A stretch of DNA of 64,000 nt, taken from positions 152,568 through 216,567 of the forward strand of contig NW_006889836.1 of the NCBI RefSeq assembly GCF_000231115.1. Direction: 5' to 3'. The stretch is from Vittaforma corneae ATCC 50505 (Eukaryota; Microsporidia; Nosematidae). Each line of letters begins with the position of its first letter. The stretch's first letter is position 1. Under the pieces are notes generated by a model. It was not told the DNA's origin. It made no database searches and worked only from the letters and a program-made list of their open reading frames with translations. The position numbers and the translations under genes are program-made. Positions 2,310 to 56,577 of the stretch are shown in pieces.

Positions 2310-2750
2310 ATGAGTGACAACGAAAGTAGTCATGAGTTTTTGTCTCTTCTAAATCAAATAACAAATGACGGGATGGATAGGAGTTTATATGAAAAGATAG
2401 CATGTGAGTTTACAAACTTCAAAAACATTCCATCCTCTTATCTTTTGAGTCTTTTGAAACATTTTGTGAGATTCGAAGATGAGCCTTTATATGTTAATGA
2501 AATTAGAAACTATCTTAAAGAGAACGACCATGAGCTATTTATAGAGTATGGGAATAAGTTTAAAAACTGTAAAGGTTGTTTTGAGGTATTTGGTATTCAA
2601 CCTGAGAACCTCAAAGAATACGATTTTGTCAAAGTAGAAAGAGAAAAGAAAGAATGCAATGAGAAGGTGTATAGCAATCTTAAAGATAGAAGAAATGGGG
2701 ATAGAAAAATAAAGAAACAGGCGAAATTACTTGCTGCCGAAAAGATATAA
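2310..2750 (+). CDS. Unknown protein with charged C-terminus, probably frameshifted at its end
   Basis: The frame opens at 2241, but the ATG at 2310 has ACCCCCAG directly upstream and is the likely start, giving 146 residues before TAA at 2748. The protein is helical and acidic at first, then becomes Lys/Glu-rich from about residue 110. The stop falls inside that charged helix. A +1 change near 2745 opens a second frame at 2746-2829 that continues the same Lys/Glu/Leu helix for 27 codons (for example KEKLERLNEKKKKKEELEEL) and stops at TGA 2827-2829. The intact product was therefore probably about 173 residues. I do not recognise a family. The gene lies upstream of, and in the same direction as, topoisomerase II. 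Confidence 0.6.
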   Translation: MSDNESSHEFLSLLNQITNDGMDRSLYEKIACEFTNFKNIPSSYLLSLLKHFVRFEDEPLYVNEIRNYLKENDHELFIEYGNKFKNCKGCFEVFGIQPENLKEYDFVKVEREKKECNEKVYSNLKDRRNGDRKIKKQAKLLAAEKI

Positions 2751-3017
2751 AGAAAAGCTCGAGCGTTTAAATGAGAAGAAAAAGAAGAAGGAGGAGCTTG
2801 AAGAGTTAATTAGAAAGCAGAATCTGTGATGAATATTTTGTAGTAATAGTTCTATGCTATTCTTTGCCAGTTTATTAAAATAGACGCATATCAACACATA
2901 GTATTTGGTCTTGTATAGATACTAAACAGTAATGGCTGTTCTTTTAACATTTACTTGATTTCAAAATTTTACAACTTAAATATTTTCTAGCTCAAGTATC
3001 TTTCCGAAATGACCCTC

Positions 3018-4814
3018 ATGGGTAAAACAATTGAAGAGACATATCAGAAAAAGACACCGAAAGAACATATTCTTCTTAGACCAGATACTTACATTGGTGC
3101 CATAGACAAGGATGTGCAGCAGATGTACGTCTGGGATGATGAAAAAAAGAAAGTTGTTTGCAAGTCAGTCAGCTATGTTCCGGGTCTCTACAAGATTTTC
3201 GATGAAATACTGGTAAATGCAGCTGACAACAAGATGAGAGACCCAAAGATGAACATCCTGAGAGTGGATATATCAAAGGAACAGAACCAAATTTCAATTT
3301 TCAATAATGGAAGCGGTATACCTGTGAAGATACACGCAAAGGAGAATGTATACGTTCCTGAACTCATCTTTGGTCACCTTCTTACTGGAAGTAACTACGA
3401 CGATAACGAAAAGAAAATTACAGGCGGTAGAAATGGATATGGCGCCAAGCTGTGCAACATCTTTTCCACCGAATTTATAGTAGAGACTGCGGACAAGTCA
3501 GTTAAAAAAAAGTATTACCAAAGATTCACGAAAAACATGGATAATACCGAAGAACCAATTATTGAGAGGTATACCGGGGAAGAGTTTACTAAAATCACAT
3601 TTAAACCTGATCTGAAAAGATTCAAAATGGCGGAACTTGAAGATGACATCATTTCTCTTTTAAAGAAACGTGTATATGACATGTGTGGTACCTTGAAGAG
3701 TGTAAATGTGTACTTAAATGGTGAGCTTCTTCCAGTTAAAAATTTTAAGGAGTATATTAAACTATATCTTCACAATGAAGAACAAGTTGTTCACTCAATC
3801 GTGAATGGGCGTTGGGAGGTCGGATTTGCTGTGTCTGAGGATCAGTTCAACCAGGTCAGCTTTGTTAATAGTATTTCTACATCAAAGGGAGGCACACATG
3901 TAAATCACGTAATGGATCAGCTGATTGATCCTATAACAGAGGCTATTAAAAAGAAAGATAAAAGTCTTGATGTCAAACCTATTCATATAAAAAATAACAT
4001 ATTTATTTTTATTAACTGTCTCATCGAAAATCCGGCTTTTGACAGCCAAACCAAGGAAAACCTGACACTGAAAGTTTCTTCATTTGGATCAAAATGCTTA
4101 CCTATTGAATCGTTTGTCAAGGATATTATCAAAAATACTCCGCTAGTTGAGAAAATTGTTTCATTTTCCAGAGCCAAGCAATCTGCACAGTTGAAAAAGA
4201 CTGATGGAACAAAGACGTCACGTCTCAGTGGAATACCTAAGCTTGAAGATGCAAATCTAGCAGGTACGAAGCGATCGCAGGAATGTACTCTTATTCTCAC
4301 AGAGGGAGATTCGGCCAAAACACTGGCTGTTGCTGGATTATCAGTAGTAGGCAGAGACTTGTATGGCGTCTTTCCTTTAAGAGGTAAATTATTGAATGTT
4401 AGAGAAGCTAATCACAAACAAATTATGGACAACTCTGAAATATCGAGTATTAAGAAAATCCTTGGATTGCAGCACGGGAGGATATATGAAGACACAAGCA
4501 CTCTAAGATACGGACATATTATGATTATGACAGATCAGGATCATGATGGTTCCCATATCAAGGGATTGATTATTAATTTTCTTGATCATTTTTTCCCGTC
4601 GCTTCTCAAGATTAAGAATTTTCTCCTCGAATTTATCACGCCAATTATCAGGGCCACCAAGAAAGGTGTTACGCAGGATTTTTTTACAATTCCTGAATAT
4701 GAAAAATTTAAGGCAGAAAACGAGGGATGGGCAATAAAATACTACAAAGGTTTAGGTACATCGACCTCCAAAGATGCAAAAGCAGTATTTTTCAGATCTT
4801 CCAAAGCATGTTAA
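3018..4814 (+). CDS. TOP2: DNA topoisomerase II, 5' segment (ATPase, transducer, TOPRIM)
   Basis: N-terminal half of the type IIA topoisomerase that passes one duplex through another in the nucleus. Motifs in order: GHKL ATPase with DEILVNAADN, the GRNGYGAKL ATP lid, the transducer motif SKGGTHVNHV, then TOPRIM with LTEGDSAKTLAVAGL, PLRGKLLNV and the metal-binding DQDHDGSHIKGL. The frame opens at 3009, but the second ATG at 3018 follows GACCCTC, the usual start signal, so I prefer it. The real protein sequence runs to about DAK at 4773-4781. The remaining codons to the stop at 4814 are out of frame, because the conserved YFSDL continuation sits in the +1 frame beginning at 4783. See the next entry. 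Confidence 0.95.
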   Translation: MGKTIEETYQKKTPKEHILLRPDTYIGAIDKDVQQMYVWDDEKKKVVCKSVSYVPGLYKIFDEILVNAADNKMRDPKMNILRVDISKEQNQISIFNNGSGIPVKIHAKENVYVPELIFGHLLTGSNYDDNEKKITGGRNGYGAKLCNIFSTEFIVETADKSVKKKYYQRFTKNMDNTEEPIIERYTGEEFTKITFKPDLKRFKMAELEDDIISLLKKRVYDMCGTLKSVNVYLNGELLPVKNFKEYIKLYLHNEEQVVHSIVNGRWEVGFAVSEDQFNQVSFVNSISTSKGGTHVNHVMDQLIDPITEAIKKKDKSLDVKPIHIKNNIFIFINCLIENPAFDSQTKENLTLKVSSFGSKCLPIESFVKDIIKNTPLVEKIVSFSRAKQSAQLKKTDGTKTSRLSGIPKLEDANLAGTKRSQECTLILTEGDSAKTLAVAGLSVVGRDLYGVFPLRGKLLNVREANHKQIMDNSEISSIKKILGLQHGRIYEDTSTLRYGHIMIMTDQDHDGSHIKGLIINFLDHFFPSLLKIKNFLLEFITPIIRATKKGVTQDFFTIPEYEKFKAENEGWAIKYYKGLGTSTSKDAKAVFFRSSKAC

Positions 4815-6744
4815 AAGTTTTTCACCAATATCAGAACCTGATCGTGAACTAATTGACTTAGCTTTCAATAAAAAGAAGGCGGACGAACGTAAGTCTTGGC
4901 TTGGCGACTTTGTTCCTGGCACCTACTTGGATCAATCGGCTTCTAACATTTCAATTTCTGATTTTATCAACAAAGAGTTGATTTTATTTAGTGTGGCTGA
5001 TAACACCAGGTCTATTCCGTCCATTATGGATGGATTGAAACCTGGCCAGAGAAAGGTATTGTTTAGCTGCTTTAAGAGAAATTTAAAATCAGAAATAAAA
5101 GTTGCCCAATTGGTGGGTTATGTCAGCGAGCAATCTGCGTACCACCATGGCGAGCAATCACTTTGCGCCACTATTGTTAACATGGCGCAGGATTTCGTTG
5201 GGTCTAACAATATTAATTTACTATTACCAATAGGATCGTTTGGTTCTCGTTTACAGGGTGGCAAGGATGCTGCTAGTTCGAGATACATATATACCAATCT
5301 TAATCCACTAACTAGGCTAATCTTTAGTGAGCATGACGACCCTATTCTCAACTATTTAGATGAGGATAATGTAAGAATTGAGCCCGAATACTATGTTCCG
5401 ATTATTCCAATGGTACTTGTCAACGGTGCAGATGGAATAGGCACCGGATGGTCCACTAGTATTCCAAACTTCAATCCACTAGATGTCCTTAAGAATATCA
5501 GAAAGCTAATGCAAAATGAAAAGATGGATGAAATGGCTCCATATTACAAAAACTTTCGAGGAGAAATTCTGAGACAATCCGAAGGTAAGTTTGTAGTGAA
5601 CGGTATTGTTGAACAACTTGATGAGTATAACTCTGAGATTTTAGAACTTCCCGTAGGAACATGGACACAGACATACAAAGAATACTTGGAAAATCTATTA
5701 CAAAATGGAGTGATTAGAGATTACAAAGAATATCACACCGAGAAAAAAGTTAATTTTCTTGTGACCTCATTTAAAAAGTTTCCGTTAAAAATTTCAACAA
5801 CTTTAACAACATCAAATATGGTGTGCTTTGATTCAGAAGGCAAAATCAAGAAGTACGAGACACCTTTGGAAATAATCAAGGAATTTTACTATACTCGACT
5901 GAGATTTTATACTACACGTAAAGAATATCGATTGAAAGCAATTAAGGAGGAGTTAAATAAACTTGAGAATAAGGCAAGATTTATCAGAGAAGTTATTAAT
6001 GGAAGACTTGTAATCAACAATCGCCCAACGGATAGTATTGTTAGGGATTTGGAGTCAATGAAGTTTGATAGGTTTGATAACTTTGAGTATTTACTCGGAA
6101 TGAAGATTTCATCTTTGACTAAAGAAAAAGTTGAGAAGTTAAATAAGGAATGTGAAGAGAAAAGGACCGAGTATGAGACGCTTTCTAGGAAGTCTGCATA
6201 TGATCTATGGTCTGAAGACCTTGATAAATTTGAGGCTGCCTACATTAAAGTATTTGAAGAGGATAGAGCTGAGTACGATGCTGAAGTTTCTAAGAAATCT
6301 AAAAAGCCTCTCAAAAAAAAGTTTTCCACTCAAGAATTAGCCAAGTATGGGGTCATTGCCGAATCATCTTCAATAAAGAAGTTAGATAAAAAAGAAACGA
6401 CTTCAGTTCAAAAAAAAGTAAAATCAAAGACCAAAGCCAATGACAAGCCTGATAAAAAGTCAGTTAAAGTGACAAAGAAAAAGGCTAAAAGTAATGAACA
6501 GCCTGTCAAAAAGATTAAAACAGAAGCATCTGCTAAATCGTTTGGAGCAGCTGTAGAAAGTGACTCCTCTGAGTTCTCTAATCCTGGGATAAATACAGGA
6601 ATCTTGATAATTAAATACCTAGTGATTAACTTCCAAAATATAATGTGTTGTTTTGGAGTGTCTGAAGTTCAAAATACCAGGTTAATATTTGAAATTTTGG
6701 CAAGTTGGTGTGTTTTTTTAAAGTTTTGCACACAAGTACCCTAA
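4783..6744 (+). CDS. TOP2: DNA topoisomerase II, 3' segment (winged helix, tower, C-gate, tail)
   Basis: Continuation of TOP2 in the +1 frame. It begins with QYFSDLPKHVK and carries KKKADERKSWL, SDFINKELILFS, the KPGQRKVL motif and the winged-helix segment GGKDAASSRYIYT with the catalytic tyrosine. NGADGIGTGWST, the coiled-coil C-gate and a Lys/Ser-rich nuclear-type tail follow. One surplus base (G at 4782 in GCAAAAGCAG) separates it from the 5' segment. Everything else about the gene looks functional. The last ~50 residues, after SDSSEFSNPG (about 6590), turn hydrophobic and Cys/Phe-rich. This is unlike a topo II tail and may be read-through of a lost stop or a second frame change. Confidence 0.95.
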   Translation, partial: QYFSDLPKHVKSFSPISEPDRELIDLAFNKKKADERKSWLGDFVPGTYLDQSASNISISDFINKELILFSVADNTRSIPSIMDGLKPGQRKVLFSCFKRNLKSEIKVAQLVGYVSEQSAYHHGEQSLCATIVNMAQDFVGSNNINLLLPIGSFGSRLQGGKDAASSRYIYTNLNPLTRLIFSEHDDPILNYLDEDNVRIEPEYYVPIIPMVLVNGADGIGTGWSTSIPNFNPLDVLKNIRKLMQNEKMDEMAPYYKNFRGEILRQSEGKFVVNGIVEQLDEYNSEILELPVGTWTQTYKEYLENLLQNGVIRDYKEYHTEKKVNFLVTSFKKFPLKISTTLTTSNMVCFDSEGKIKKYETPLEIIKEFYYTRLRFYTTRKEYRLKAIKEELNKLENKARFIREVINGRLVINNRPTDSIVRDLESMKFDRFDNFEYLLGMKISSLTKEKVEKLNKECEEKRTEYETLSRKSAYDLWSEDLDKFEAAYIKVFEEDRAEYDAEVSKKSKKPLKKKFSTQELAKYGVIAESSSIKKLDKKETTSVQKKVKSKTKANDKPDKKSVKVTKKKAKSNEQPVKKIKTEASAKSFGAAVESDSSEFSNPGINTGILIIKYLVINFQNIMCCFGVSEVQNTRLIFEILASWCVFLKFCTQVP

Positions 6745-6816
6745 CATATTCTGATCCAAACGGTTGCAACATTGATAGTGCAATGCTCTATAAATAGCCA
6801 CACTAACAACTAAACA

Positions 6817-6831
6817 CCCCTAGGCTAGGGG
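6817..6831. repeat. GC-rich odd palindrome upstream of DCP1
   Basis: CCCCTAGGCTAGGGG: two 7-base arms perfectly complementary around a single central base, standing out in AT-rich intergenic DNA about 80 nt before the DCP1 start. It could be a dimeric factor-binding site. No function is shown. Confidence 0.45.
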
Positions 6832-6909
6832 TTTCAGTGCTAGGCATTTGATTAAGATCAAAGTAGTCTTCCTCTTGAAATGCTGATTTTCAATACCACC
6901 CTCAGTCGA

Positions 6910-7350: not shown

Positions 7351-7511
7351 AAATAAATAAGCAAGCAAATGCCATAAATAAATATATAATGCTCTGGAAC
7401 TCTAAGTTGTTATTGCACTTTGTGTATGAATCCATAACTGTGGAGTAATGCACCCACCTCCTGTTTATAACTAAATATACTTATTTTTGAAGCCAGCTTA
7501 ACAACAACGAT

Positions 7512-8060
7512 TTATTCAATATTTGACTGAACATTTTTAATGTACTTGCTGCACTCAATACCTGCAATACAGCCTGAGGCTGCCGCTGTGACAGCCTGTT
7601 TGTACTTAAAATCCTGTACATCTCCGCATGCAAAGAGTCCTTTCACAGAAGTATGCATTCGCGTATTAGTAATAACATATCCCATCTCATTGACCTTAAC
7701 ATCGCTCTCTAAAAATTTAGTATTTGGATCGTGCCCAATAGCAAAAAATAATCCACTAACTCTCAACTCAAACTTCTCGTCGGTTTGAGCATTTTTCAGC
7801 TTTATGTATTCAAGAAATTCAGTTCCATGTGCTGAAACAAGATTGGCCGGTGTGATTATTTCAACATTTCTAAGAGACTTCACTCGCTGGAGCATATCTC
7901 TTCTTGCTCTAAATTCATTTCTCCTATGAATCAAATATACTTTTGATGCAATATTGCTCATATAAATTGTTTCCTCCATTGCCGAGTCTCCACCACCAAT
8001 AATGGCAACGACTTCATCTTTAAAGAAAAATCCATCACAAACAGCGCATGCACTAATACC
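7512..8060 (-). CDS. TRR1: Thioredoxin reductase, 3' segment (catalytic CAVC, NADPH and FAD-closing domains)
   Basis: C-terminal two-thirds of a low-molecular-weight thioredoxin reductase, which passes electrons from NADPH through FAD to thioredoxin. It starts in frame with GISACAVCDG (redox-active Cys pair CAVC). The NADPH-binding GGGDSAMEE, HRRNEFRA, and the FAD-closing GLFACGDVQDFKYKQAVTAAASGC motif follow. The frame is +1 relative to the 5' segment: one C of the CCCC run at 8059-8062 (plus strand) is surplus. An ATG-initiated open frame begins slightly upstream (8120), but those codons are out-of-frame shadow of the 5' segment. Confidence 0.94.
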   Translation of the reverse strand, partial: GISACAVCDGFFFKDEVVAIIGGGDSAMEETIYMSNIASKVYLIHRRNEFRARRDMLQRVKSLRNVEIITPANLVSAHGTEFLEYIKLKNAQTDEKFELRVSGLFFAIGHDPNTKFLESDVKVNEMGYVITNTRMHTSVKGLFACGDVQDFKYKQAVTAAASGCIAGIECSKYIKNVQSNIE

Positions 8061-8460
8061 CCTTTTGCCAGAACTCTCCTTCCTTCGTGCCTGGGACATA
8101 CAATCGTCGTGCAGACGCACCTGTTGCTAATATAACACCCTTGGCCTCATATTTTGAATTTAAAGTATAAACAATAAAATTTTCACCATGCCTTTCCAAT
8201 TTGGTTACTGTACTGGAAATAACTCTAAGACCCTTACTTACTGCTTGGGCTTTCATGTCGTCCATTAGTTTAGGACCCTGCGTTCCATGTGGAAATCCTG
8301 GATAGTTATCTACTGCTGTAGTTGTGGTGAGCTGGCCACCAGGGCCGATGCCACCAACTACTTCACCTTCAAAGAGTAAAGGCTTGTAGTCTATAGTAAA
8401 TAATGCAGCTGTGTATGCGGCAGGACCACTACCTATTATCACAACATTTTCAACCACCAT
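8053..8460 (-). CDS. TRR1: Thioredoxin reductase, 5' segment (FAD-binding)
   Basis: N-terminal FAD domain with IIGSGPAAYTAALF, GGQLTTTTAVDNYPGFP and the ATGASARRLYVPG segment. It runs into the family-typical EFWQKG and then hits TAT-TAG because of the extra base. The family continues with ISACAVCDG, which is exactly what the other frame supplies. The start ATG at 8460 is preceded by AAATTTCCCCC, combining the AT-rich and C-run elements of the local start signal, so transcription and initiation look intact. Either an assembly indel or a recent inactivating mutation in this redox gene explains the break. Confidence 0.94.
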   Translation of the reverse strand: MVVENVVIIGSGPAAYTAALFTIDYKPLLFEGEVVGGIGPGGQLTTTTAVDNYPGFPHGTQGPKLMDDMKAQAVSKGLRVISSTVTKLERHGENFIVYTLNSKYEAKGVILATGASARRLYVPGTKEGEFWQKGY

Positions 8461-8802
8461 GGGGGAAATTTCGGATTAAAATAAATTTTTTGCCAGCACG
8501 CATGTAAAACATGTGAAAACTAGACAATCCCATGATCATACTCAAATTCCTACTATGTTTGTATTTAAAAATTGTGCTTAACAAATAATTTTTAAAGTAT
8601 ACTTCAAAGCTACATGATTGTATTGTATTTAATATTTAAGGCTGGTTGCAGCTGCATTAATATTTTATTTAGACATTTGTTTTAATGATAAACTTTTATA
8701 ACTAAACATGTATTGAGTGTGTTTTAAGCTATTCAATACAATTGTTGAAACATCAGTTTCGGACCAGAATATTATCATAAATAGTTTCAAAATCCACCAA
8801 GC
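8461..8802. other. Divergent intergenic region
   Basis: AT-rich spacer between divergent TRR1 and the secreted protein at 8803. An 18-codon frame at 8532 follows a CCC run (hydrophobic, ends at 8588), but it is too short to support as a gene. No RNA gene is seen. Confidence 0.4.
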
Positions 8803-30787: not shown

Positions 30788-31235
30788 TGCTTGTTTTTAG
30801 TTTTCCCTTTTCAATATAATCTGAAACTGTTTTAAGCTATTTACAAAATAAACAAGATTGAAAAACTCAACATTTTATTATATTTATTAACAGTAGGCTG
30901 CAATAGCAGCACTCAGCAATTCATTTAATAAGCTTAATTTAAATTTACAACATACCGTTTAATTTTTAATTTGTCAATTGTGTTTGAATATTGCTAAGCA
31001 ATGGCACTGTCATTTAGTGCATATTAAAAAAAATTAGAATGTATCGAGGCTGTCTAGTTTTGATGTGCTGTCACGGGCTATCTTATGGATATATACTTTA
31101 TTTAAACTTAAGAACAATGCCTAAGATTACATTGAAATTAAAAGTAGTTTATTGGTTGTTAACCTCAAACAAATATATCAGCGATCCGACAGTTAAAACT
31201 TGCTTTTATTTAAGTTTCCTTCAGAATTTAGTTCC
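30788..31235. other. Intergenic region, 448 bp
   Basis: AT-rich spacer between divergent lectin genes. Only short frames without start motifs. No RNA gene seen. Confidence 0.4.
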
Positions 31236-31757
31236 ATGGCACTATTTCTATTCTTCATTACTGCACTATGCTCAACACTGATAATTCCTAAGGCACATCT
31301 AAATCACAGGCTTTCTTATCACAAAAATGGGGCCAAGTTCATCAACAGCTCTGTTAATGAAAATACACGGGTCGATGACTACTTTGATTTTCCTGACAGC
31401 TTCAGCTACCTCAGCAGCTCAGAATACTCGCTGTGCAGAAATTCAAACAACAAGCTATACATCTGTCCAAAGTCTATCAAATCTATGGCTTGGAAGCTTG
31501 AAGACATAAGAAGAGAAGTAAGGTTCAGAGATCCTTACGGTGATTGCCTTACAGTTGGGATGCATAATCTTAAAGATGATAGCTATAATGTTGAGCTGAA
31601 GGAATGCTCCGAGAAAAACCAAAATCAAATATTCATACTATTTAGTGATCATGGTAATATCAAAACTTCAGAAATTACAAGGAAAAACATAAACAGTGTG
31701 CCAGAAAACGAAAAAAATGATTTTAGAATGAAAAATATTAAATTTAAATGGTATTAA
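31236..31757 (+). CDS. Secreted ricin-B-lectin-like protein
   Basis: A 173-residue protein. The start at 31236 (after GTTCC) gives a clean signal peptide MALFLFFITALCSTLIIP; the frame opens earlier at 31200. Mature part: YSLCRNSNNKLYICPKS then SMAWKLEDI, and GDCLTVGMHNLKDD with ELKECSEK then QIFILFS. Two Cys-pair repeats each followed by aromatic-x-hydrophobic match the other lectin-like proteins here, especially 26684. A Lys/Asn-rich tail ends it. Confidence 0.63.
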   Translation: MALFLFFITALCSTLIIPKAHLNHRLSYHKNGAKFINSSVNENTRVDDYFDFPDSFSYLSSSEYSLCRNSNNKLYICPKSIKSMAWKLEDIRREVRFRDPYGDCLTVGMHNLKDDSYNVELKECSEKNQNQIFILFSDHGNIKTSEITRKNINSVPENEKNDFRMKNIKFKWY

Positions 31758-32654
31758 AGTGAAATTTCAACAATTACTGCTCTGGTTTTTAAAATCATCA
31801 CTTTAGTCGTGTTAGAACTGTTCAATACCTTCAACACTGTTCGATTCATTTTTACTATTAATGGTAAATAAATTATGTCAATTTTTAATGTTTTTATTTT
31901 ATTTTAACTGTTTAATTATTTTTTAACTTTTGAAAAATTTTAGATGATCAAACTAGCATATTTTGAAATAAAAGTGACAGGAATATCCAATTCCTTCAAA
32001 TTTAAATAGGTTAGCGATGATCTTTATTATACCTTGATTTAACTCTTGCTTGCAATGCTGGTATTATTGATTTGGCTATTCACTAGTAAATATTGCACGT
32101 GTTGTTCTTTGATTAAAATATAATCTGTTAATCAAACGTCAATTGCTTATTTTTCTTAACAGTCAAAAGATCATTAAAAATCTTTATCATTTGTTTAATA
32201 AAAACGTTAATTATTAAAAAAATGTCAAATGTCTTGACACATATCACATTCATTATATTAAGCTATAATTATTGATCTTAAGTGCACTTTTCTTTATATT
32301 TCTATACTAGCTATTCAAAACTCAGATTAGCTTGTTTAAAAGTCAGAGAAGTAACGGCGATCAAAAATGTAAAAATCAATACATTCCAACAATCAACAAC
32401 TCCACTTTTACTTCCCTTTATTTCAAATCATTGGCTTTGATCTGTCTCCTAAATCATGTACTTTCTCTAAAAATTTTGCAAAAAATTTAACTTCAATTCA
32501 ATAATTAAAACAACTGAAATTGCCAATAATATAATTGTTTTGAAAATTTTAAATTGATTTGCCACCACAATTGAATTCTTATAAAAATTTGTATTTTTAG
32601 TGTTAAGCTTTTGTTTTAAATTCAATTTATATCATATTTTTGAAACATACCCTT
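31758..32654. other. Long AT-rich intergenic region, 897 bp
   Basis: Extremely AT-rich, gene-free region upstream of SIN3, with runs of A and T and no frame with a credible start. It ends in ATACCCTT before the SIN3 ATG. It may hold an extended SIN3 promoter or a non-coding RNA; neither is visible. Confidence 0.4.
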
Positions 32655-33680
32655 ATGTCTACTGAAAGTGAAGCAGTTCAGAACAGTTCAGAGCATGATA
32701 GCGTAAAGAAACAGGCTATGATATATGAAGATGCAGATCAGAGACAAAGAGTAATGGAGGATCAGCAGATGAGATACCATCAGAGTGTCAGTCCACCACC
32801 TCATCCGATGATGTATCGGCATGGAATGGAACAGCTTATGATGCGTCAAGCGATGCCTCGTTCGATCTCTCCACGTATACAACCTACCGAAGATTCAGAT
32901 CTTACAGATGCAATGATTTTTCTTAATAGAATCAAAGAGGAGTTTAATGATAATTTGCATGTTTATGATAGCTTTCTAGAGACAATGAGAGACTTTAGAT
33001 TCGAAAAAATCGATGCCGAAGAAGTTTGTAAGGCTGTGAGAATTCTTTTCAAAGACAAGCCTCATCTGATTCGCTTGTTTGATGAGTATCTTCCTCATCA
33101 TTTAAGATATTCAGATATGAGTAGAAGTTATGACATGCAAATGCCAGAGAGACATAAAAATGCCTCATTTAGAGGATCAGGATTTATTCCTAAGCCACCT
33201 GCTCCTATGCATGTGGGTCAAATTCCACCTGGATCTGCTTTGCATATCAACAGAATGGGGCATCCAATACCAACACATCCTTCGTTTATTGGGAGGTCTG
33301 TCAGACAAAGCCCTCCGCCTCAGATGAATGTTCCTCAAGAATCTCAGTCGAGATTCAAAGCTACAGCACCCCAGCAACCACAGTCACCAAGACATAAAAC
33401 CGCACACGATTTTGTACAGCAGGTTAAGAAAAGATATTTAAATAAGCCATTGATATATAAACAATTCGTAGATCTGCTACAAAACTCTAAAAATAGCTTT
33501 GAGAAACTCTATACCCAAGTAAGTGCATTGCTCTGTGATTCACCTGATTTAATTGAGAAATTTGAAAGGAATTTTAAGACTCCACAATCTCCAGATGGAA
33601 TGATGTATACAAGCGACAGAGATCCTCTCAGAAAGATTAAACAGAGGCTGCAGAGCAAGGCAATCTTGAACAATTCTTGA
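32655..33680 (+). CDS. SIN3: Sin3 corepressor, 5' segment (two PAH domains)
   Basis: Scaffold of the Sin3-HDAC corepressor. This segment contains two paired amphipathic helix domains. PAH1 begins LTDAMIFLNRIKEEFNDN with YDSFLETMRDFRF and VRILFKDKPHLIRLFDEYLP. PAH2 begins AHDFVQQVKKRYLNKPLIYK with FVDLLQNSKNSF and LLCDSPDLIEKFERNF. A Pro/Met/His-rich linker lies between. ATACCCTT precedes the ATG at 32655; the frame opens slightly earlier at 32640. Family-like sequence ends near 33650; the last codons before TGA 33680 are out of frame, because the gene continues in the -1 frame. Confidence 0.9.
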   Translation: MSTESEAVQNSSEHDSVKKQAMIYEDADQRQRVMEDQQMRYHQSVSPPPHPMMYRHGMEQLMMRQAMPRSISPRIQPTEDSDLTDAMIFLNRIKEEFNDNLHVYDSFLETMRDFRFEKIDAEEVCKAVRILFKDKPHLIRLFDEYLPHHLRYSDMSRSYDMQMPERHKNASFRGSGFIPKPPAPMHVGQIPPGSALHINRMGHPIPTHPSFIGRSVRQSPPPQMNVPQESQSRFKATAPQQPQSPRHKTAHDFVQQVKKRYLNKPLIYKQFVDLLQNSKNSFEKLYTQVSALLCDSPDLIEKFERNFKTPQSPDGMMYTSDRDPLRKIKQRLQSKAILNNS

Positions 33681-35041
33681 AAGTTATCAATTATTACAAT
33701 CAAAATTACCTAAATGCTAGTGATGTTATCACTCTTGTTGAACCATTAATAGAAGATAAAGAGAACATGGCTGCTTTCAAATCATTTATTAAATATGAAG
33801 AGGTTGTGTTAGAAACCGAAGCAACTAGATATAAAGGATTAGAAAAGATAGGATCATACAAGATACTTCCAATAGAGATCACTTTAGATTCCTCTATACC
33901 CCTCTTTAAGGAAGTACTCAACTGTACCTGTGTTTCTGTATCTACACATGAGTCGGAAGATGACACGTATGTTTTTAGACATAAAAACCATTCCGAAGAT
34001 CTTCTCACCCGTATTGTAGATGAACGATCGGAGGCTGATTTAGTTATGGATCGCCTAAAGTATTTAATCATTAAACTTGAGGAAATCTATGAATCAGTTG
34101 AAGATGTTGAACTTGCTCCTAACGACATTCAAATGTCAGGTTCACTGGTCAAAGAAACATTGAAGAATGTGTATGATACCAAATGCCCCGAAATTCTTGA
34201 GTCCATTCTTATCAATCCTAAGAAGGCTATTCCTGTGGTTCTTAAGAGATTGAACAAGGTTTTTAGGGAAAATCTAGAACGATTACGTGATTTCAAAAAG
34301 TTCTGGCGGGATATTGCTGAAGAACATTATTACAAGGCCTATGATACTAAAGGCGTGCTGTATCGTTCCCAGGAGAAGAACTATCTTTCATTAAGAAACG
34401 TTGAATGCGAGTCTCACAGCCCCTTATCTTTCGACGTGAAAGATTTTGAATTGTTAAGCAATATACGAAATTTTTTTAGTGTTTTTGCTAAAAGTCACGC
34501 ATCTAACAGTTTTAGAAAGCCAGCCGTTGAAGCCCAGCTTCAAGTTTTTGATTCACTCCTTGAGGAACTGTACAAGGAGTCCACATCTAAAATAACGAAT
34601 TTTAATACCTATGCATTGTACTATTATCTTCTCATGCTTTATACTCGTCTTGAGGAAATAAAGAAATTAAAACTAGAGCCTATTTCCTCTAATCCAGTAA
34701 CTGTGTCTATCTCTCTTCAGGAAGAATATCACATTGAAGATCGATATGCAGAGATATTAAAAGCAGCCGAAGAGCTCATGAATAAGCAACTTGATGCAGA
34801 TAGATTTGAGGAGATTGTAAGAAGAATGACTGATAGTATGGGATACAAACTGTATAATTTTAAGAAAATAGTATCAAAAATAGAGAGACAGGTTAATAGT
34901 CTTATTGAGGGAAATACAGAAGAAGTACAGGATGAAGAGGGAGAACAAGCCAATTATTCCATAGTAAAAGCCGGAAGTATTGTAACAATTCGTAGGGTTG
35001 AAGATAGTGCTATTGAAGAAGTTTCAACAAATAAAAATTGA
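33653..35041 (+). CDS. SIN3: Sin3 corepressor, 3' segment (PAH3 remnant and HDAC-interacting region)
   Basis: Continuation in the -1 frame from about 33641-33660. It begins with EQGNLEQFLKVINYYNQNYL, the family-typical short PAH3-like helix pair, followed by the HDAC-interaction region (GSYKILPIEITL, LNCTCVSVSTHESEDDTYVF, DERSEADLVMDRLKYLI) and a helical C-terminus. The conserved 'S-E-F-RH-N--E--L' positions are present. The open frame has no ATG near its start; the nearest initiating codon would be TTG at 33677, further evidence that it is the second half of one gene. One base missing at CAG/GAG (33651-33655) explains the split. Confidence 0.85.
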   Translation, partial: EQGNLEQFLKVINYYNQNYLNASDVITLVEPLIEDKENMAAFKSFIKYEEVVLETEATRYKGLEKIGSYKILPIEITLDSSIPLFKEVLNCTCVSVSTHESEDDTYVFRHKNHSEDLLTRIVDERSEADLVMDRLKYLIIKLEEIYESVEDVELAPNDIQMSGSLVKETLKNVYDTKCPEILESILINPKKAIPVVLKRLNKVFRENLERLRDFKKFWRDIAEEHYYKAYDTKGVLYRSQEKNYLSLRNVECESHSPLSFDVKDFELLSNIRNFFSVFAKSHASNSFRKPAVEAQLQVFDSLLEELYKESTSKITNFNTYALYYYLLMLYTRLEEIKKLKLEPISSNPVTVSISLQEEYHIEDRYAEILKAAEELMNKQLDADRFEEIVRRMTDSMGYKLYNFKKIVSKIERQVNSLIEGNTEEVQDEEGEQANYSIVKAGSIVTIRRVEDSAIEEVSTNKN

Positions 35042-35355: not shown

Positions 35356-36174
35356 TTAAGGTCTGTTATAAACGTATGTAGTATTGCTCTTTGATGCCAT
35401 AAACAGAATAAGCACAATAACTATTAAAATAACAACTCCAACAGCTATCCTTTTGATGATATTCAGTTTTCTTTGGTACGCCAAAGCAGATTCAAGCTCT
35501 TTGTTCGCTTGCTTCGTATTCATTTCTGCCGCTGTAACATTCACAACGATCTCATCTACAACCTTTGTGTTTTTATGAACCATTTCATCTATTTCATCTA
35601 TCAAAGCCACAAGCTTATTTATATTTTCCACAATGTTGTCTATTTTCTTTCTTCGATACTTGGCCTGTTTCAGCATTTGCTGTCCAGAATGTGTTCCTAG
35701 TGAAAATGCCGTATTTAATGATGCCTCGGAATCAGAACATTCAACAATCTTGTCAAGCTCAGCCTCACTTACGTTTGGATTTACAATCTGAAAGGCTTGC
35801 TTCAACAAATCTTTCTCCTTCGTCTTATACTCACTCTTCAAGTTTCTATAGGAATATACTGCATCAGATAACTCCTTATAATACTTATACGTATGGACTT
35901 TCCGTATTTCAATCTCTTCTTTAGTCAATTCCCCATTCTTCTCCAGTTTATTGGTCTCTTCTTGGGTACTTTTGATAGCGTCTTTTACAGCATGACAAAT
36001 CTTGTCGAATGTGATATCTAATGTATCAATCTTCTTATCCAGAGCAAGCTCCTTTTCCTCAGTCAGCACAGAAGTCTGTTTCATTCTAATACATTCTTTC
36101 ATTTCCTTAATTATTTTTCTAAGCTCTTTTATATTCCCCAGTATCAGTTTACTGTTGTCCAAAAATTCAATCAT
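35356..36174 (-). CDS. Syntaxin-type SNARE (Sso/Qa-like)
   Basis: A 272-residue tail-anchored SNARE. N-terminal Habc-like helices (about 1-110), the SNARE motif (about 175-235: KIDNIVENINKLVALIDEID, MVHKNTKVVDEIVVNV) and a single C-terminal membrane helix (IIKRIAVGVVILIVIVLILFMA). The SNARE layout and the plasma-membrane syntaxin-like ADTKQANKEL-type pattern favour Sso/syntaxin-1. In my alignment the central zero-layer position, normally Gln (ESQGEMIDRIE), is Asn here (HKNTKVVDEIV). CCCCTTT directly precedes the ATG at 36174. It shares only 37 bp with the divergent endonuclease IV start. Confidence 0.88.
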   Translation of the reverse strand: MIEFLDNSKLILGNIKELRKIIKEMKECIRMKQTSVLTEEKELALDKKIDTLDITFDKICHAVKDAIKSTQEETNKLEKNGELTKEEIEIRKVHTYKYYKELSDAVYSYRNLKSEYKTKEKDLLKQAFQIVNPNVSEAELDKIVECSDSEASLNTAFSLGTHSGQQMLKQAKYRRKKIDNIVENINKLVALIDEIDEMVHKNTKVVDEIVVNVTAAEMNTKQANKELESALAYQRKLNIIKRIAVGVVILIVIVLILFMASKSNTTYVYNRP

Positions 36175-36211
36175 AAAGGGGAATGTTATGTTTCATTTTT
36201 GGACCCTCTGC

Positions 36212-36790
36212 ATGAAGCTGATTGGCGCACATCTTTCAATAGCGAAAGGTCTTCACACTGTGCAGAAACAAATGGACATTTTGGGTTGTGAAACTTGTGC
36301 AATATTCTTAAAAAATCAGAGGAAGTTTGAATCTTCTGAACTAAGCTTGGCGGAAATTGAAAAATTTAGAAAAACAGTGAGGAATCCCACAATAATTCTA
36401 CCGCATGGCTCATATTTGATCAATTTGGCCAATCCTGATACTGTAGAGAAAAATATGACATGTTTTTTGGATGATTTGAGGAGATGTCACAAGCTAGGAA
36501 TACAACTGTATAATCTCCATCCAGGATCGGATACTAAAAAGATAGGGACTGCAGCAGCCACTAAGCTTATTGCCGACAATATAAACAGAGCCATGGAGGA
36601 AGTTCCTAACATATCAATTTGTATTGAAAATATGGCTGGACAGGGGAATGTCCTAGGAAAGACCTTTGAGGAACTAAGAATGATAATTGATAATGTAAAA
36701 GACAAGCAAAGAATAGGAATAACATTGGATACATGCCATTTATTTGTTGCAGGATTTGATATTAGAACAGATGAATCTTTTGAGAAGTAA
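36212..36790 (+). CDS. APN1: Endonuclease IV (Apn1-type), 5' segment
   Basis: AP endonuclease of base excision repair, TIM barrel with three Zn. Visible: KLIGAHLSIAKGL (first His ligand), LPHGSYLINLANPD, YNLHPGSD, ICIENMAGQGNVLG (Glu ligand) and GITLDTCHLFVAGFDI (Asp/His ligands). The ATG at 36212 follows GACCCTCTGC. After ESFEK the frame meets TAA at 36788. The family continues with a V-x-D-FD segment that is found at 36787-36810 one frame back (VIKDFDDK). That piece is itself cut by TAG at 36811, and the third segment follows in yet another frame. Confidence 0.92.
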   Translation: MKLIGAHLSIAKGLHTVQKQMDILGCETCAIFLKNQRKFESSELSLAEIEKFRKTVRNPTIILPHGSYLINLANPDTVEKNMTCFLDDLRRCHKLGIQLYNLHPGSDTKKIGTAAATKLIADNINRAMEEVPNISICIENMAGQGNVLGKTFEELRMIIDNVKDKQRIGITLDTCHLFVAGFDIRTDESFEK

Positions 36791-36809
36791 TAAAAGACTT
36801 TGATGATAA

Positions 36810-37055
36810 GTAGGGCTAAAGTACTTAAAAGGAGTGCATCTTAATGATTCCAAATTTGACCTGGGATCATGTAAAGATAGACATGAGACGATAGGAAAAG
36901 GGAAATTAGGGTTAGAAGCATTTAAATATATTATGAATAGTAAGCATTTTGACAATATTCCATTGATATTGGAAACACCTGAACCAGAGAAGTATCACGA
37001 AGAGATTGGGCTACTTAAAAGTCTTGTCGTTGATACAAAGCATACATTTCATTAA
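36810..37055 (+). CDS. APN1: Endonuclease IV, 3' segment
   Basis: Begins VGLKYLKGVHLNDSKFDL, giving the His ligand in HLND, then DRHETIGKG (Asp and His ligands), EAFKYIM and IPLILETPEP (final Glu ligand). All residues needed for a complete endonuclease IV are thus present across three frames. Both junctions (GAG-AAG-TAA and GAT-AAG-TAG) need the G of AAG to be counted twice, i.e. one base is missing at each. The internal ATG at 36834 is not a credible start for a partial barrel. Ends 36 bp from the convergent SNARE gene. Confidence 0.9.
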   Translation, partial: VGLKYLKGVHLNDSKFDLGSCKDRHETIGKGKLGLEAFKYIMNSKHFDNIPLILETPEPEKYHEEIGLLKSLVVDTKHTFH

Positions 37056-37091
37056 ATCAAATAAATATTAAAAACGGTTTTCATTTTTAAT

Positions 37092-41736: not shown

Positions 41737-43203
41737 TTATTTACCGTCAGACAAGCCCTGCTTGCGCTTGTCCGATATTGCTTCTATTCTTACATCCCCC
41801 CCTTTTCCATTAGTGCTTGTGTTATCTGTGCTTTTTCTCAAATAAATTGCTTGTACTGACGAAAATGAAGTGTTAAGCTCTGAAAATTCAATTTCATGCC
41901 CCATTTCCCTTAGTTTTTCAGTTATTCTGTCTGGAAGTGTTGGCTCAATCATTGTTTTGATTGGAAACAATTGATTATGAATCCTACATAGCGAAACTGC
42001 CCTTTCAAGCGTGTTACCTGCTAGCAAATATACTATTGTTGTTATTATGGCTGTTGGTATTCTTGTTCCACCTGCTGCACCAATTATGAGTATTTCATTA
42101 TCTTTTATTAATATTGTAGGTGCAGCAGATGAAAATGGCCTTTTCCCCCCCTCTAGAATATTAGCTGGCATCTTTTCTAAGCCAAAGGTATTGTCTATCC
42201 CAGGAATATAAAAATCATCAATTTGGTTATTAAAAATAATACCAGTTATCGGATCAAGTAATTTGGATCCAAACTCAAGATTGATCGTGGATGTAAGAGA
42301 AACTATCATTCCATCCTTGTCTATTACGTTTAGATGGGTGGTTCCGTGGTCTTCTTTGTAGAATGGGATATTTCTGTATTCCTCACTTGACATAGCATTT
42401 TTCAGACTGAACTGTCTAAATATTGAAGTTGCTTTGATGTCAGATATGATGAGAGAAACTTTCTTTTGCCATTTGTCAAGAAATTCTGGGTCTTCAAACT
42501 TTCCTCGCTCTGCTGCCATAAATTTAAATACTTCAATTAAAATGTGATAAAGATAGAATGAATTTTCATTGTTACTTAAAATAAAAAGATCTCTGATGTT
42601 TATTCTTTCAAGGATCTTCAAAGCTTCAATGATAAAAAGACCTGATGTGGGTAGATTTGTTGTATAGACTTGAAAATCGTAAAAATGTCCCTTTAAAACG
42701 CTTCTCTTCTTCACTTCATACTCTTTTAGATCTTCTAAGGTGAATACTCCACCCTTACTGTTAAGGAAGTCTACTATTTGCTTTGCAAGGGTTCCTGTGT
42801 AAAATGAAAGAGGATCATTGGAAAGTATTTCCAGCGTTTTTGAAAGGTTATCTCTTTCAATAATGTCTCCTTCTTTTACTAGGTCTTCATTTCTTGTGTA
42901 TGTACTTTTCAATCCCGGATCATCAAAAATATACTTTGAATTTTTTATTAGCTTTTGTTCAAGAATATTCGAAACTTTAAACTTTTTTGAAATTTCAATT
43001 GCATCTGTGAAGAGATCCTTCCATGGGAGTTTTCCATATTCTTTATGAACCTCGTAGAATCCTAGAACTTCACCAGGCACACCCACAGAGAGTCCTGTGG
43101 TTGTTGCTAGTCTTTGGTCATCCATGAACATTTTGTGATCTATTTTCTTAGGCGCTACCTCTCTAAAGTCAAAAGAGTCAAAAATATTGTCTATGTCAGT
43201 CCT
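41737..43203 (-). CDS. GGT1: Gamma-glutamyltransferase, 3' segment (large and small subunits)
   Basis: Continuation of GGT in the +1 frame. It starts RTDIDNIFDSFDFREVAPKK (family FRE-AP motif), then MFMDDQRLATTTGLSVGVPG, and the autoprocessing region DHGTTHLNVIDKDG, in which the conserved Thr begins the small subunit. TSTINLEFGSKLLDP, NNQIDDF, KRPFSSAAPTI and GAAGGTRIPTAIITT follow. The catalytic and substrate residues are all present. An ATG lies at 43131 in this frame, but starting there would remove the N-terminal strand that the 5' segment supplies. Confidence 0.92.
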   Translation of the reverse strand, partial: RTDIDNIFDSFDFREVAPKKIDHKMFMDDQRLATTTGLSVGVPGEVLGFYEVHKEYGKLPWKDLFTDAIEISKKFKVSNILEQKLIKNSKYIFDDPGLKSTYTRNEDLVKEGDIIERDNLSKTLEILSNDPLSFYTGTLAKQIVDFLNSKGGVFTLEDLKEYEVKKRSVLKGHFYDFQVYTTNLPTSGLFIIEALKILERINIRDLFILSNNENSFYLYHILIEVFKFMAAERGKFEDPEFLDKWQKKVSLIISDIKATSIFRQFSLKNAMSSEEYRNIPFYKEDHGTTHLNVIDKDGMIVSLTSTINLEFGSKLLDPITGIIFNNQIDDFYIPGIDNTFGLEKMPANILEGGKRPFSSAAPTILIKDNEILIIGAAGGTRIPTAIITTIVYLLAGNTLERAVSLCRIHNQLFPIKTMIEPTLPDRITEKLREMGHEIEFSELNTSFSSVQAIYLRKSTDNTSTNGKGGDVRIEAISDKRKQGLSDGK

Positions 43204-43465
43204 TTTTTCTTATTAATACAAACCCACCTCCACCAATACCAGCAGAAAATGAATTGACAACTCCAATAACTAAAGCAGCCGAGATGGCTGCATCTACAGC
43301 ATTGCCACCTCTTTCTAAGATTTTCTTCCCAACAGTTGAAGCAAGCTTACACTCTGTGTTAACAGCATAGTGGTAATATATTGAGTTTGAACAAACAGGA
43401 CCATGACCTGCATTTTCAGACATTGCTAGGTGGAGGAATGCTAAGATCAAAGACCAATAAGCCAT
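43196..43465 (-). CDS. GGT1: Gamma-glutamyltransferase, 5' segment (signal peptide and N-terminal domain)
   Basis: Starts at ATG 43465 with a signal peptide (MAYWSLILAFLHLAMSENAG), then KILERGGNAVDAAISAAL and IGGGGFVLI, classic GGT N-terminal motifs. It stops at TGA right after the run AGAAAAAAGGAC; removing one A of the six restores the frame to the 3' segment. GGT cleaves extracellular glutathione. The signal peptide predicts a secreted or surface enzyme, which could supply Glu/Cys-Gly or act on the host. Confidence 0.92.
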   Translation of the reverse strand: MAYWSLILAFLHLAMSENAGHGPVCSNSIYYHYAVNTECKLASTVGKKILERGGNAVDAAISAALVIGVVNSFSAGIGGGGFVLIRKKD

Positions 43466-43888
43466 TTTGTTTTTAATGACTTTTATTTTTATACTTGAAA
43501 CAATTCATATTTGAAGAAGGTTATTAAAATAGAAATATTTAAATAAAATTCATTCAACACTCGTTTACTTACGTGTTTATAATATTCGCTGTGTTTTTTT
43601 AGCTCTGGCTTTAATACTGGGACTCAAACAAGCTATTTTTGTGTTTTAACTGTTTGACATTTGTTTTTCATATGAATGTAACTAAAAATAGTTATAAACA
43701 AAGTGCTAAAGCTCTTACTCAACACACTCTACGAAGACAATAGTGTATAACTGACAAACAAGAAATATCAAAAACCCTAAATATAATCTACAGGCTTCAT
43801 TAGAAGTGACACTTCTTTGCCAGTGATTTTTAAGCTTAATTGTTCAATCTTTTTATTTAGTACATAAAAATATATAAATCTTGTCCTT
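43466..43888. other. Divergent intergenic region, 423 bp
   Basis: AT-rich spacer between divergent GGT1 and MRE11. No RNA gene or repeat is recognised. Confidence 0.4.
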
Positions 43889-49175: not shown

Positions 49176-49346
49176 AAATAGAAATGAAATCACCTGTCAA
49201 AGTTGAATGAGAATATAAATCTTGTACAATACGACAGTATTTTGTAAGGATGACGTTCATTCAATAAACTTAATGAGAAAGGCAAAGAAGATTTTTTGTA
49301 TTTTGGATAGCTCAAAACTACAGTTATTTAGTGTGATCAAATAAGC

Positions 49347-53200: not shown

Positions 53201-53373
53201 TGAAGGAGTAAATTTTTATCTACATTACAATGAACATAGAAGAAATAAATGCTCAGATAATATCAATTATACCTATGTAATATCAATTTAGTTGTACTTA
53301 TTCAACTTATTGTCCATATAATTAAAATCATGCTATAATTTTATTATGAGCTTCTATCTATATCTGCCCCAAA

Positions 53374-54252: not shown

Positions 54253-54429
54253 AGCTAAATGACAATTAACTGAAATATTCTAATTTTAAAATAGATTGAA
54301 TGTCAAGATTGATATCAAAAGTTTCATATTTAATATAATTACAATGTAAAGTATTAATAAATTGCATAAAACAATTACATAGCTTTACTAAATTTCTGTT
54401 AAGATTTAAAATCACACCTTCGTTTTTAT

Positions 54430-55131
54430 TCAAATATACCTTTTAATCTGCTCAGGCGTAAGCATTTCCACTTTATCCTTGCTTACAATAGAAACTTCAA
54501 CGTTGTTCTCGGTCAGCTTTTCTTTCATTACTCCTTTCAAAACTTCTAAAATTTTGGGAATACTTTTTTCTCTTTCACTATAACTTTCATATTGCTTCTC
54601 TAAAATATCTTCAACTACTTCAGATGCAGCGCCCATTGCCCTAGCTTGATATTGAAGGTATGATCCGCTTGGATCTATACTGTATAGTACAGGCGTGTTG
54701 TTTTCAAAGGCTGCAATTAATAATGACACTCCAAAGGGTCGACTAAATATCTTTTTTGAAAGATCCTTTTCACTAAACTTCAAGGCTAAATCACAGATAT
54801 CTTCCATAAGCTTTTCTACTCCGATTTGTTCTGAAAAAAGTTTTTCATGATCTAAACATATACTTCTGCATTTATTAATAATTGTCGGTGCATCTCCACT
54901 CACTCCTGATACTGCAGCAACGATTGTATCGTAAATTTTAAAATGTTTCTTAACACTATCGGGATTTTGGAGTGAAGAAAGCAATTTTTTTTCAGATGCA
55001 AGGATAACGCAATCTGAAAGCTTTATGCCAATCGTCGTCGTACCCAAACCACATGCTTTCATTGCATACTCTACTTGTATGATTCTTCCTTCCTGGTTGT
55101 ATGTATTTATGTCCGAATGGGAATGGCTCAT
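54430..55131 (-). CDS. PUP2: 20S proteasome subunit alpha5
   Basis: Structural alpha-ring subunit. NTYNQEGRIIQVEYAMKACG is the alpha signature; FSRPFGVSLLIAAFENNTP, SIDPSGSYLQYQARAMGAAS and LKGVMKEKLTENNVEVSIV identify alpha5. The start at 55131 follows TGCCCCAAAAT; the frame extends upstream but was not used. The N-terminal Tyr-Asp-Arg gate motif of alpha subunits is not intact: the corresponding stretch reads SHSDIN. 233 residues. Confidence 0.93.
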   Translation of the reverse strand: MSHSHSDINTYNQEGRIIQVEYAMKACGLGTTTIGIKLSDCVILASEKKLLSSLQNPDSVKKHFKIYDTIVAAVSGVSGDAPTIINKCRSICLDHEKLFSEQIGVEKLMEDICDLALKFSEKDLSKKIFSRPFGVSLLIAAFENNTPVLYSIDPSGSYLQYQARAMGAASEVVEDILEKQYESYSEREKSIPKILEVLKGVMKEKLTENNVEVSIVSKDKVEMLTPEQIKRYI

Positions 55132-55334
55132 ATTTTGGGGCAAGTAAAATGAAAATAAATGATAATACACAAGAAGGCAGCTATGTTTGTAAATAACATG
55201 TGCAAATTGCATGTAATGAAATACAAGAGTATATTATAAATAAAATTATATATTCAAATATTAAAATGGTATGGATAAAAGTATATATCATAAATAATTA
55301 ATTTAAGCCTGTCTTAATCTATAAGCTAATTTAT

Positions 55335-55445
55335 TTATGAACGTAGATATTCAATCCTATCATATATCGTGGGGTGATAACTTTTTAATGAATTAAACAG
55401 CCATGTAGATTGTAAATTAGATTCCCCCTTTATTGTTATATCATA
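55335..55445 (-). CDS. STE24: CAAX protease Ste24, 3' segment
   Basis: Short C-terminal piece in the +1 frame: YDITIKGESNLQSTWLFNSL then SYHPTIYDRIEYLRS, ending at TAA 55335-55337. The SYHPTIYDRIE segment equals the family-typical 'FSHP-LLERL' ending, so this is clearly the missing end of the gene at 55441-56577. One T of a TTT run (55444-55446) is surplus. Confidence 0.85.
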   Translation of the reverse strand, partial: YDITIKGESNLQSTWLFNSLKSYHPTIYDRIEYLRS

Positions 55446-56577
55446 AAGTACTTTTCGACAGTTCTTTTCCATATCCGTGGGATTTTGCAACTGTGTCAGC
55501 TGAAAACTCCGAAACCTGACTGACCATTTTATGAAACATTAATAGCCACCTATTTATAAACAGAAAGTATATTAAAAATAAAACTATAAATGAACCATTC
55601 TTTGTTATTAAGCTGTCAGAAAACTTGTTTGAAATTGAAGCATAGATTTGAAGGACAACTACCATTTCAATGGTTTTGAGAAAGAAAAGTGTCAAAATCT
55701 TTTTTATCAATGAACAAAATTCAGAATGTCCTATTTCATGCATCAAAATTGCTTCAAATTCATTGCTTGTAAGATTTTGATAGTCACCATATATTTCAAT
55801 TCTTTCATATGAGCCCCAACCTACTAATGCTGCATTTATACTTTGAGATTTTTTAAGTTTCTCTGAATATACTTTGTTTTGGAGTCCTCTTTCAATCAGA
55901 TAATCTCTAACATTTTTTGAGAATTCTGAAATGTTGACTTTTTTCATGTTTTCTAAGTTTACATCCTCTAAGGATACAAAGTCAGATATTGCCTTAACAA
56001 AATATGCCATATAGCAAGCAATAATAAGCTTTGAAGAATATACTTTAAAGAGTTTCTTAAGTATCATGTAGAAAGTAGGTAGCACAAACAAGCCTAGAAA
56101 TGTGTAGAAAAGAATTGCTGCTAAAGTCAAGCTTTCTCCTGAAAATATATTAGCAAAAATTTTACTTCCAAAAACCGAAGCTAAAAGGAAGGTGCTAATT
56201 AATGAAATAAATAAGAGTTCTTTCATCCTTACACTGTGTCTAAATTTTGGAAGTATGTCAATACTGCTTGATATTACAGTTTGTAGTGATTTTCTAAATA
56301 TTAAATTTAGGAATAGTAATGAAGAGCCTAACACACAAAAATGCTTAAAAATTTCACTAGGAATTCTGTTTGTGCGCTTTTCAAGAGCTTTGAGTTGTGA
56401 ATTAATGTATTTTTTGTCGCTTGAAATAAGCTCAAGTGTTTTTGAGTTGGCTGGTAGACCATATAATTGTTTTGATAATGAAAATTCCAGTTGACGGTCA
56501 AATGAAAATTCATTAAGCAAAGTAAGCATTCCTAGAATAAAAGAAGACCAAACAGCAATGATGAATACGTTTTTCAT
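55441..56577 (-). CDS. STE24: CAAX prenyl protease 1 (Ste24), 5' segment
   Basis: Zinc metalloprotease of the ER membrane that trims prenylated CAAX proteins. Multiple membrane segments; catalytic HEIGH motif in FEAILMHEIGHSEFC, preceded by INAALVGWGSYERIEIYGDY. Third ligand region EFSADTVAKSHGYGKEL. Stops at TGA right after SKSTL, before the conserved final helix, which sits in the +1 frame (previous entry). The N-terminus is compact relative to yeast Ste24 but has the family plan. Confidence 0.92.
   Translation of the reverse strand: MKNVFIIAVWSSFILGMLTLLNEFSFDRQLEFSLSKQLYGLPANSKTLELISSDKKYINSQLKALEKRTNRIPSEIFKHFCVLGSSLLFLNLIFRKSLQTVISSSIDILPKFRHSVRMKELLFISLISTFLLASVFGSKIFANIFSGESLTLAAILFYTFLGLFVLPTFYMILKKLFKVYSSKLIIACYMAYFVKAISDFVSLEDVNLENMKKVNISEFSKNVRDYLIERGLQNKVYSEKLKKSQSINAALVGWGSYERIEIYGDYQNLTSNEFEAILMHEIGHSEFCSLIKKILTLFFLKTIEMVVVLQIYASISNKFSDSLITKNGSFIVLFLIYFLFINRWLLMFHKMVSQVSEFSADTVAKSHGYGKELSKSTL

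What the first reader, a model, noticed from the sequence alone, without database searches (positions are those of the whole stretch)
2745..55446. At least seven genes are split by single-base frame changes while both halves stay conserved
TOP2, TRR1, GGT1, STE24 and the gene at 2310 need one base skipped (+1). SIN3 needs one base re-read (-1), and APN1 needs this twice. Family motifs run right up to each junction on both sides, so these are recent or artificial breaks, not old decay. The +1 junctions mostly sit in purine or homopolymer runs (GCAAAAGCAG, CAAAAGGGGTATTAG, AGAAAAAAGGACTGA, GAAAAGATATAA, ACTTTATGA). That fits homopolymer indel errors in the assembly, but five of five being 'one base too many' in otherwise intact genes is a bias worth testing. 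Alternatives are relaxed selection with pseudogenes, or genuine +1 recoding, which is known in some eukaryotes.
Basis: partly seen in the sequence, partly recalled or inferred. Interest (0 to 1): 0.75.

Follow-up and report, generated by a model that had tools for sequence, protein, structure and literature searches.

The report
Split genes from assembly indel errors
Several genes of this microsporidian parasite look broken by one-base frame changes, but the same kind of break turns up elsewhere in its assembly in both directions and relatives have the tested genes whole, so these are most likely sequencing mistakes rather than a new way of reading genes.

Summary
The frame breaks are in the sequence. 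Six genes (TOP2, TRR1, SIN3, APN1, GGT1, STE24) spread one conserved protein over different reading frames; the seventh, at 2310, is weakly supported. The organism is a microsporidian (2.9 Mb, 35 contigs; closest named relative Glugoides intestinalis). One search per gene found no second copy of the six in the assembly. TRR1, GGT1 and STE24 are each exactly one base longer than the single open frame of relatives 54-85% identical. The window is not special: a coding model frame changes in 190.7 kb sampled from contigs 1-3, against 5 here, at Poisson-like density. Domains split elsewhere include Hsp70, a proteasome subunit and MLH1. Direction is mixed (18 extra-base, 12 missing-base, P=0.36); 'five of five +1' was a selection. 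Junctions show no clustering at stop codons. The two SSU rRNA copies found are identical over the gene except for one single-base indel. Uncorrected assembly indels explain all of this best. A preference for homopolymer runs is suggested but not significant. Programmed frameshifting and pseudogenes fit poorly. Raw reads, which would settle it, were not available.

The parts
2220..2826 (+). Gene at 2310, two ORF pieces (2220-2747 and 2713-2826); frame change somewhere in 2713-2750. Weak.
   Evidence: Coding model at penalty -8 only, ORF limits; no Pfam family
2991..4811 (+). TOP2 upstream piece (ATPase, TOPRIM, start of TOPRIM_C)
   Evidence: Pfam, PDB sequences
4756..6741 (+). TOP2 downstream piece (rest of TOPRIM_C, DNA_topoisoIV), one frame further; frame change within 4756-4811
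   Evidence: Pfam, PDB sequences, coding model
8056..8475 (-). TRR1 upstream piece
   Evidence: Pfam, tblastn of relatives
7515..8126 (-). TRR1 downstream piece; frame change about 8056-8062
   Evidence: Pfam, tblastn, cut placement with four relatives
32607..33677 (+). SIN3 upstream piece (two PAH repeats)
   Evidence: Pfam
33641..35038 (+). SIN3 downstream piece (PAH, Sin3_corepress, Sin3a_C); frame change within 33641-33677
   Evidence: Pfam, coding model
35996..36787 (+). APN1 upstream piece (homology from about 36218)
   Evidence: Pfam, PDB sequences
36788..36809 (+). APN1 middle stretch, two bases short of the 8 residues relatives have here
   Evidence: Arithmetic; two changes called by the model at penalty -6
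36810..37052 (+). APN1 downstream piece
   Evidence: Pfam, PDB sequences
43199..43504 (-). GGT1 upstream piece
   Evidence: Pfam, tblastn
41740..43209 (-). GGT1 downstream piece; frame change about 43199-43202
   Evidence: Pfam, tblastn, cut placement with two relatives
55444..56583 (-). STE24 upstream piece
   Evidence: Pfam, tblastn
55338..55454 (-). STE24 downstream piece, 39 residues, 95% identical to P0242; frame change about 55450-55456
   Evidence: tblastn, cut placement with four relatives

Best explanation
The breaks are uncorrected single-base insertion and deletion errors in the consensus of a microsporidian assembly, probably one made from error-prone reads without enough polishing. 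In the organism the genes are most likely intact. Shown: frame changes inside six conserved genes with both flanks conserved; one open frame in relatives for three of three genes tested; the same kind of change in sampled stretches of contigs 1-3, in both directions; one rRNA copy differing from the other by an indel alone. Inferred: that reads would show the in-frame base count, and what kind of reads were used.
For: Relatives read TRR1, GGT1 and STE24 in one frame, and the window is exactly one base longer in 10 of 10 gene-relative comparisons. 25 further frame changes in 190,734 sampled bases, variance/mean 0.83 per 10-kb stretch. 8 of 20 ORF pairs scanned carry one split domain (5) or neighbouring parts of one protein type (3), among them Hsp70 and a proteasome beta subunit. 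Mixed direction, 18 to 12. Two SSU rRNA copies identical over the gene but for one single-base indel. No second copy of the six window genes found. Precedent: 58 such joins ascribed to assembly error in Nosema ceranae (PMC2685015, passages).
Against: No reads were seen. Homopolymer enrichment, the usual mark of such errors, is not significant (12 of 30, P=0.15; 3.7-fold, P=0.20). 12 of the 20 scanned pairs outside the window get no support either way from Pfam, and the model's false-positive rate was not measured. The rRNA indel could be a real difference between copies.
Confidence: 0.93

Rival explanations
1. Real frameshift mutations: the genes are young pseudogenes under relaxed selection in a reducing genome, or the mutations segregate in a polyploid parasite.
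For: Microsporidia do lose genes (general knowledge). No second, intact copy of the six genes was found in the assembly.
Against: The hit genes include TOP2, a proteasome beta subunit and Hsp70, unlikely to be lost together. Apart from the junctions the pieces are long open frames that still match their families; STE24's tail is 95% identical to a relative. One rRNA copy shows the same kind of indel.
Confidence: 0.05
2. Programmed or widespread +1 ribosomal frameshifting, as in Euplotes ciliates.
For: A sizeable share of gene models carries a called change (30 events in 180 models), similar in size to the 11.4% of genes reported for Euplotes octocarinatus (abstract of PMC5011710 in listing). 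In TRR1, GGT1 and STE24 the upstream-frame stop is only 2, 1 and 4 codons beyond the best cut, and 5 of 30 called events lie within one codon of it.
Against: 12 of 30 kept events go the other way. Distances to the stop do not differ from random coding positions (observed median 11 codons, random medians 6 and 9, P=0.13). Relatives need no frame change in three of three genes. It cannot explain the rRNA indel. I saw no shared site, but ran no formal motif search.
Confidence: 0.01
3. Short introns at the junctions.
For: Microsporidia have very short introns (recalled).
Against: Lengths differ from relatives by exactly one base in TRR1, GGT1 and STE24, and APN1 is short of DNA, not long.
Confidence: 0.005

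Closest known systems
Apparent frameshifts in draft microsporidian assemblies (Nosema ceranae, 454 reads, PMC2685015; passages seen)
   Same: Adjacent ORFs match different parts of one protein and can be joined by assuming a single-base assembly error (58 cases there).
   Different: Different species; the read type behind the present assembly is unknown to me, and no correction was made here.
Widespread +1 frameshifting in Euplotes (PMC5011710, PMC10235951, PMC4759687; abstracts in the listing only)
   Same: A sizeable share of genes appears to need a frame change.
   Different: There +1 and specified by stop codons; here both directions, no clustering at stops, and relatives need none in the three genes tested.

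Membership tests
Assembly indel error | Breaks spread at random over the assembly | tested here: met
   25 events in 20 stretches of 10 kb from contigs 1-3, variance/mean 0.83
Assembly indel error | Close relatives have one intact frame | tested here: met
   3 of 3 genes tested, 10 of 10 comparisons; the other window genes were not tested against close relatives
Assembly indel error | Indels also in non-coding conserved sequence | tested here: met
   One indel and no substitution between the two SSU rRNA copies; a single case
Assembly indel error | Preference for homopolymer runs | tested here: inconclusive
   12 of 30 against 27% (P=0.15); 3.7-fold, P=0.20
Assembly indel error | Reads contradict the consensus | not testable with these tools
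   No reads held
Programmed +1 frameshifting (Euplotes type) | One direction, +1 | tested here: not met
   18 extra-base, 12 missing-base
Programmed +1 frameshifting (Euplotes type) | Frame change at a stop codon | tested here: not met
   Median 11 codons before the upstream-frame stop, not different from random positions (P=0.13); model positions are rough, but homology places it 2, 1 and 4 codons away
Programmed +1 frameshifting (Euplotes type) | Full-length product made | not testable with these tools
   Needs cDNA and peptides
Pseudogene | Further decay: more stops, indels, loss of constraint | tested here: not met
   Pieces are long open frames with family matches running up to the junctions; no substitution-rate test was run

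The most novel reading that the evidence does not exclude
A microsporidian that tolerates or decodes frame changes in both directions in a large minority of its genes, TOP2 and a proteasome subunit included, without a fixed site, and that acquired this recently because relatives read the tested genes in one frame.
Probability: 0.01. Interest if true: 0.95.

Novelty: not a real feature. Interest (0 to 1): 0.06.

Why it matters
Taken at face value, this assembly would make essential genes look lost or recoded, and comparative studies would count false gene losses. The model frame changes among 180 gene models in the 264 kb examined, so the assembly should be checked with accurate reads before gene content is compared. 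If the indels proved real, it would be a striking case of tolerated frame changes.

Tried and rejected
Rejected: introns (lengths differ by exactly one base); a +1 bias; stop-coupled recoding; a second intact copy in the assembly (one piece or one family per gene). Inconclusive: homopolymer enrichment by two tests. Led nowhere: PDB sequence search with STE24 (no match at 0.001) and with the Hsp70 piece (no match at the strict cut-off of 1e-70 that I set); paper searches for microsporidian frameshifting (23 papers hold both terms, 15 listed, none about microsporidian decoding by title) and for this assembly or like cases (one search found none). Literature seen: passages of PMC12449221 and PMC2685015 by word search; PMC5011710, PMC10235951, PMC4759687 and PMC11232133 as abstracts in listings only.

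Limits: at the penalty used for the survey the coding model finds 5 of the 8 changes the finding lists in the window, and 7 of 8 at a laxer one, so rates are probably low. Its positions are rough: for TRR1 it put the change about 10 codons before the stop, homology about 2. Of 34 calls, 4 were dropped before counting, three near masked bases and one at a stretch end. Of the 25 kept outside the window, 20 ORF pairs were scanned with Pfam: in 5 one domain is split over both ORFs, in 3 more the ORFs hold neighbouring parts of one protein type, in 12 Pfam does not help. One further event had only its downstream ORF scanned (no family), and 4 were not scanned as pairs. The sample comes from contigs 1, 2 and 3 only. 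The model was trained on the same 264 kb it was applied to, and its false-positive rate was not measured.

Full report
WHAT IS THERE. The window is the last 64 kb of contig C3 of a 2,900,220-base, 35-contig genome. It is AT-rich (GC 28-37%) and gene-dense (47 gene models). Its TRR1, GGT1 and STE24 are closest to microsporidian proteins; the nearest hit with an organism name is Glugoides intestinalis (76%, 56% and 52%), and unnamed assemblies reach 82-85%. Stop-to-stop ORFs scanned with Pfam show families cut at ORF ends and continued in a different frame: TOP2, TRR1, SIN3, APN1, GGT1. STE24 is shown by relatives. The seventh gene, at 2310, has no Pfam family and only a faint coding signal after the junction.

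WHERE THE FRAME CHANGES LIE. Relatives' proteins aligned in separate pieces meet at the junction: TRR1 P0002 residues 1-133 in one frame and 131-313 in the next; GGT1 P0122 1-89 and 88-576; STE24 P0242 1-375 and 375-413, the last 39 residues 95% identical. In 10 of 10 gene-relative comparisons (4 for TRR1, 2 for GGT1, 4 for STE24) the window is exactly one base longer. The upstream-frame stop lies 2, 1 and 4 codons beyond the best-supported cut, so the stop is where a shifted frame ends, not the site of the change. APN1 is two bases short over an 8-residue stretch (arithmetic). A run of four equal bases touches the cut in TRR1 and STE24; in GGT1 the best-scoring cut falls just beside a longer A run, not in it.

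NOT A PROPERTY OF THIS WINDOW. I trained a codon-position model on 136,440 coding bases and let it change frame at a penalty. In 20 stretches of 10 kb from contigs 1-3 it, of which 25 remain after dropping those at masked bases or a stretch end. That is 25 events among 133 gene models and 190,734 unmasked bases, with Poisson-like counts per stretch (variance/mean 0.83). Pfam scans of 20 of these pairs show one domain split across both ORFs in five: an ATP/ADP transporter and MLH1, the DUF3591 protein with a bromodomain (TAF1 by recall), Hsp70 and a proteasome subunit (a beta subunit). Three more pairs carry neighbouring parts of MutS, CPSF2 and an RsmF-type methyltransferase. The other 12 pairs are neither confirmed nor refuted by Pfam.

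DIRECTION, STOPS, RUNS. Of the 30 kept events, 18 are one base too many and 12 one too few (P=0.36); outside the window alone it is 14 to 11. The 'five of five' bias does not survive: the five were chosen for being +1, and the same list holds three -1. The junction-to-stop distance (median 11 codons) does not differ significantly from random coding positions (medians 6 and 9, P=0.13). Runs of four or more equal bases near the junction: 12 of 30 against 27% expected (P=0.15). A likelihood test over the uncertain positions gives a 3.7-fold preference, P=0.20. The homopolymer reading is possible, not proven.

A CHECK OUTSIDE CODING SEQUENCE. The genome searches find two SSU rRNA copies. They are identical over the gene except for one single-base indel; the spacer behind them differs by substitutions as well. 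The shorter copy scores two bits higher against the Rfam model, but the Rfam alignment shown stops before the site, so I cannot say which copy is off. An indel without any substitution in a conserved rRNA is what consensus error leaves, and translational recoding cannot explain it. It is one case and could be a real difference between copies.

ESSENTIAL, NO SECOND COPY FOUND. TOP2's DNA_gyraseB family has one match in the genome. The probed pieces of TRR1, GGT1, STE24, APN1 and SIN3 each match only themselves, and the split proteasome subunit has otherwise only matches of 22-31% identity. A parasite with all of these broken is unlikely to live, and the pieces show no further decay. Consensus error explains this with one cause.

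PRECEDENT. [quoted passage not shown] The abstract of PMC11232133, seen in a listing, gives 99.95% accuracy for Nanopore bacterial genomes, about one error in 2 kb; the density seen here is lower than that. What reads this assembly was made from is unknown to me; searches did not identify it.

VERDICT. Ordinary: assembly indels in an otherwise normal microsporidian genome, confidence 0.93. Raw reads, which I could not see, would settle it.

Noticed in passing
L002:1400-3300 and L003:1400-3300: The two SSU rRNA copies are identical over the gene but for one indel, while the DNA starting about 70 bases behind it differs by substitutions and small indels; a 5S rRNA gene lies upstream on the other strand in L002.
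   Followed up: partly
L005:2594-4661 (-) and L004:4351-6719 (+): An MLH1-like and a MutS-like mismatch repair gene are both among the split ones. If the breaks were real this would hint at a mutator; but transport, proteasome and chaperone genes are split as well.
   Followed up: no
window 1-64000: GC falls from about 35% at the start to 28% at the end of the window, which is also the end of contig C3.
   Followed up: no
window 64000 (end of C3 at 216,567): The protein database lists the window's own TRR1, GGT1 and STE24 pieces on a contig of 228,241 bases, longer than C3 as held here.
   Followed up: no
window 31197-31754 (+): Weak Ricin_B_lectin match, 22.9 bits, below the family's cut-off of 29.
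   Followed up: no
L012:1-3068, L018:5481-10000 and six shorter stretches: 9,266 of the 264,000 bases used read N, so some gene models next to them are cut.
   Followed up: no
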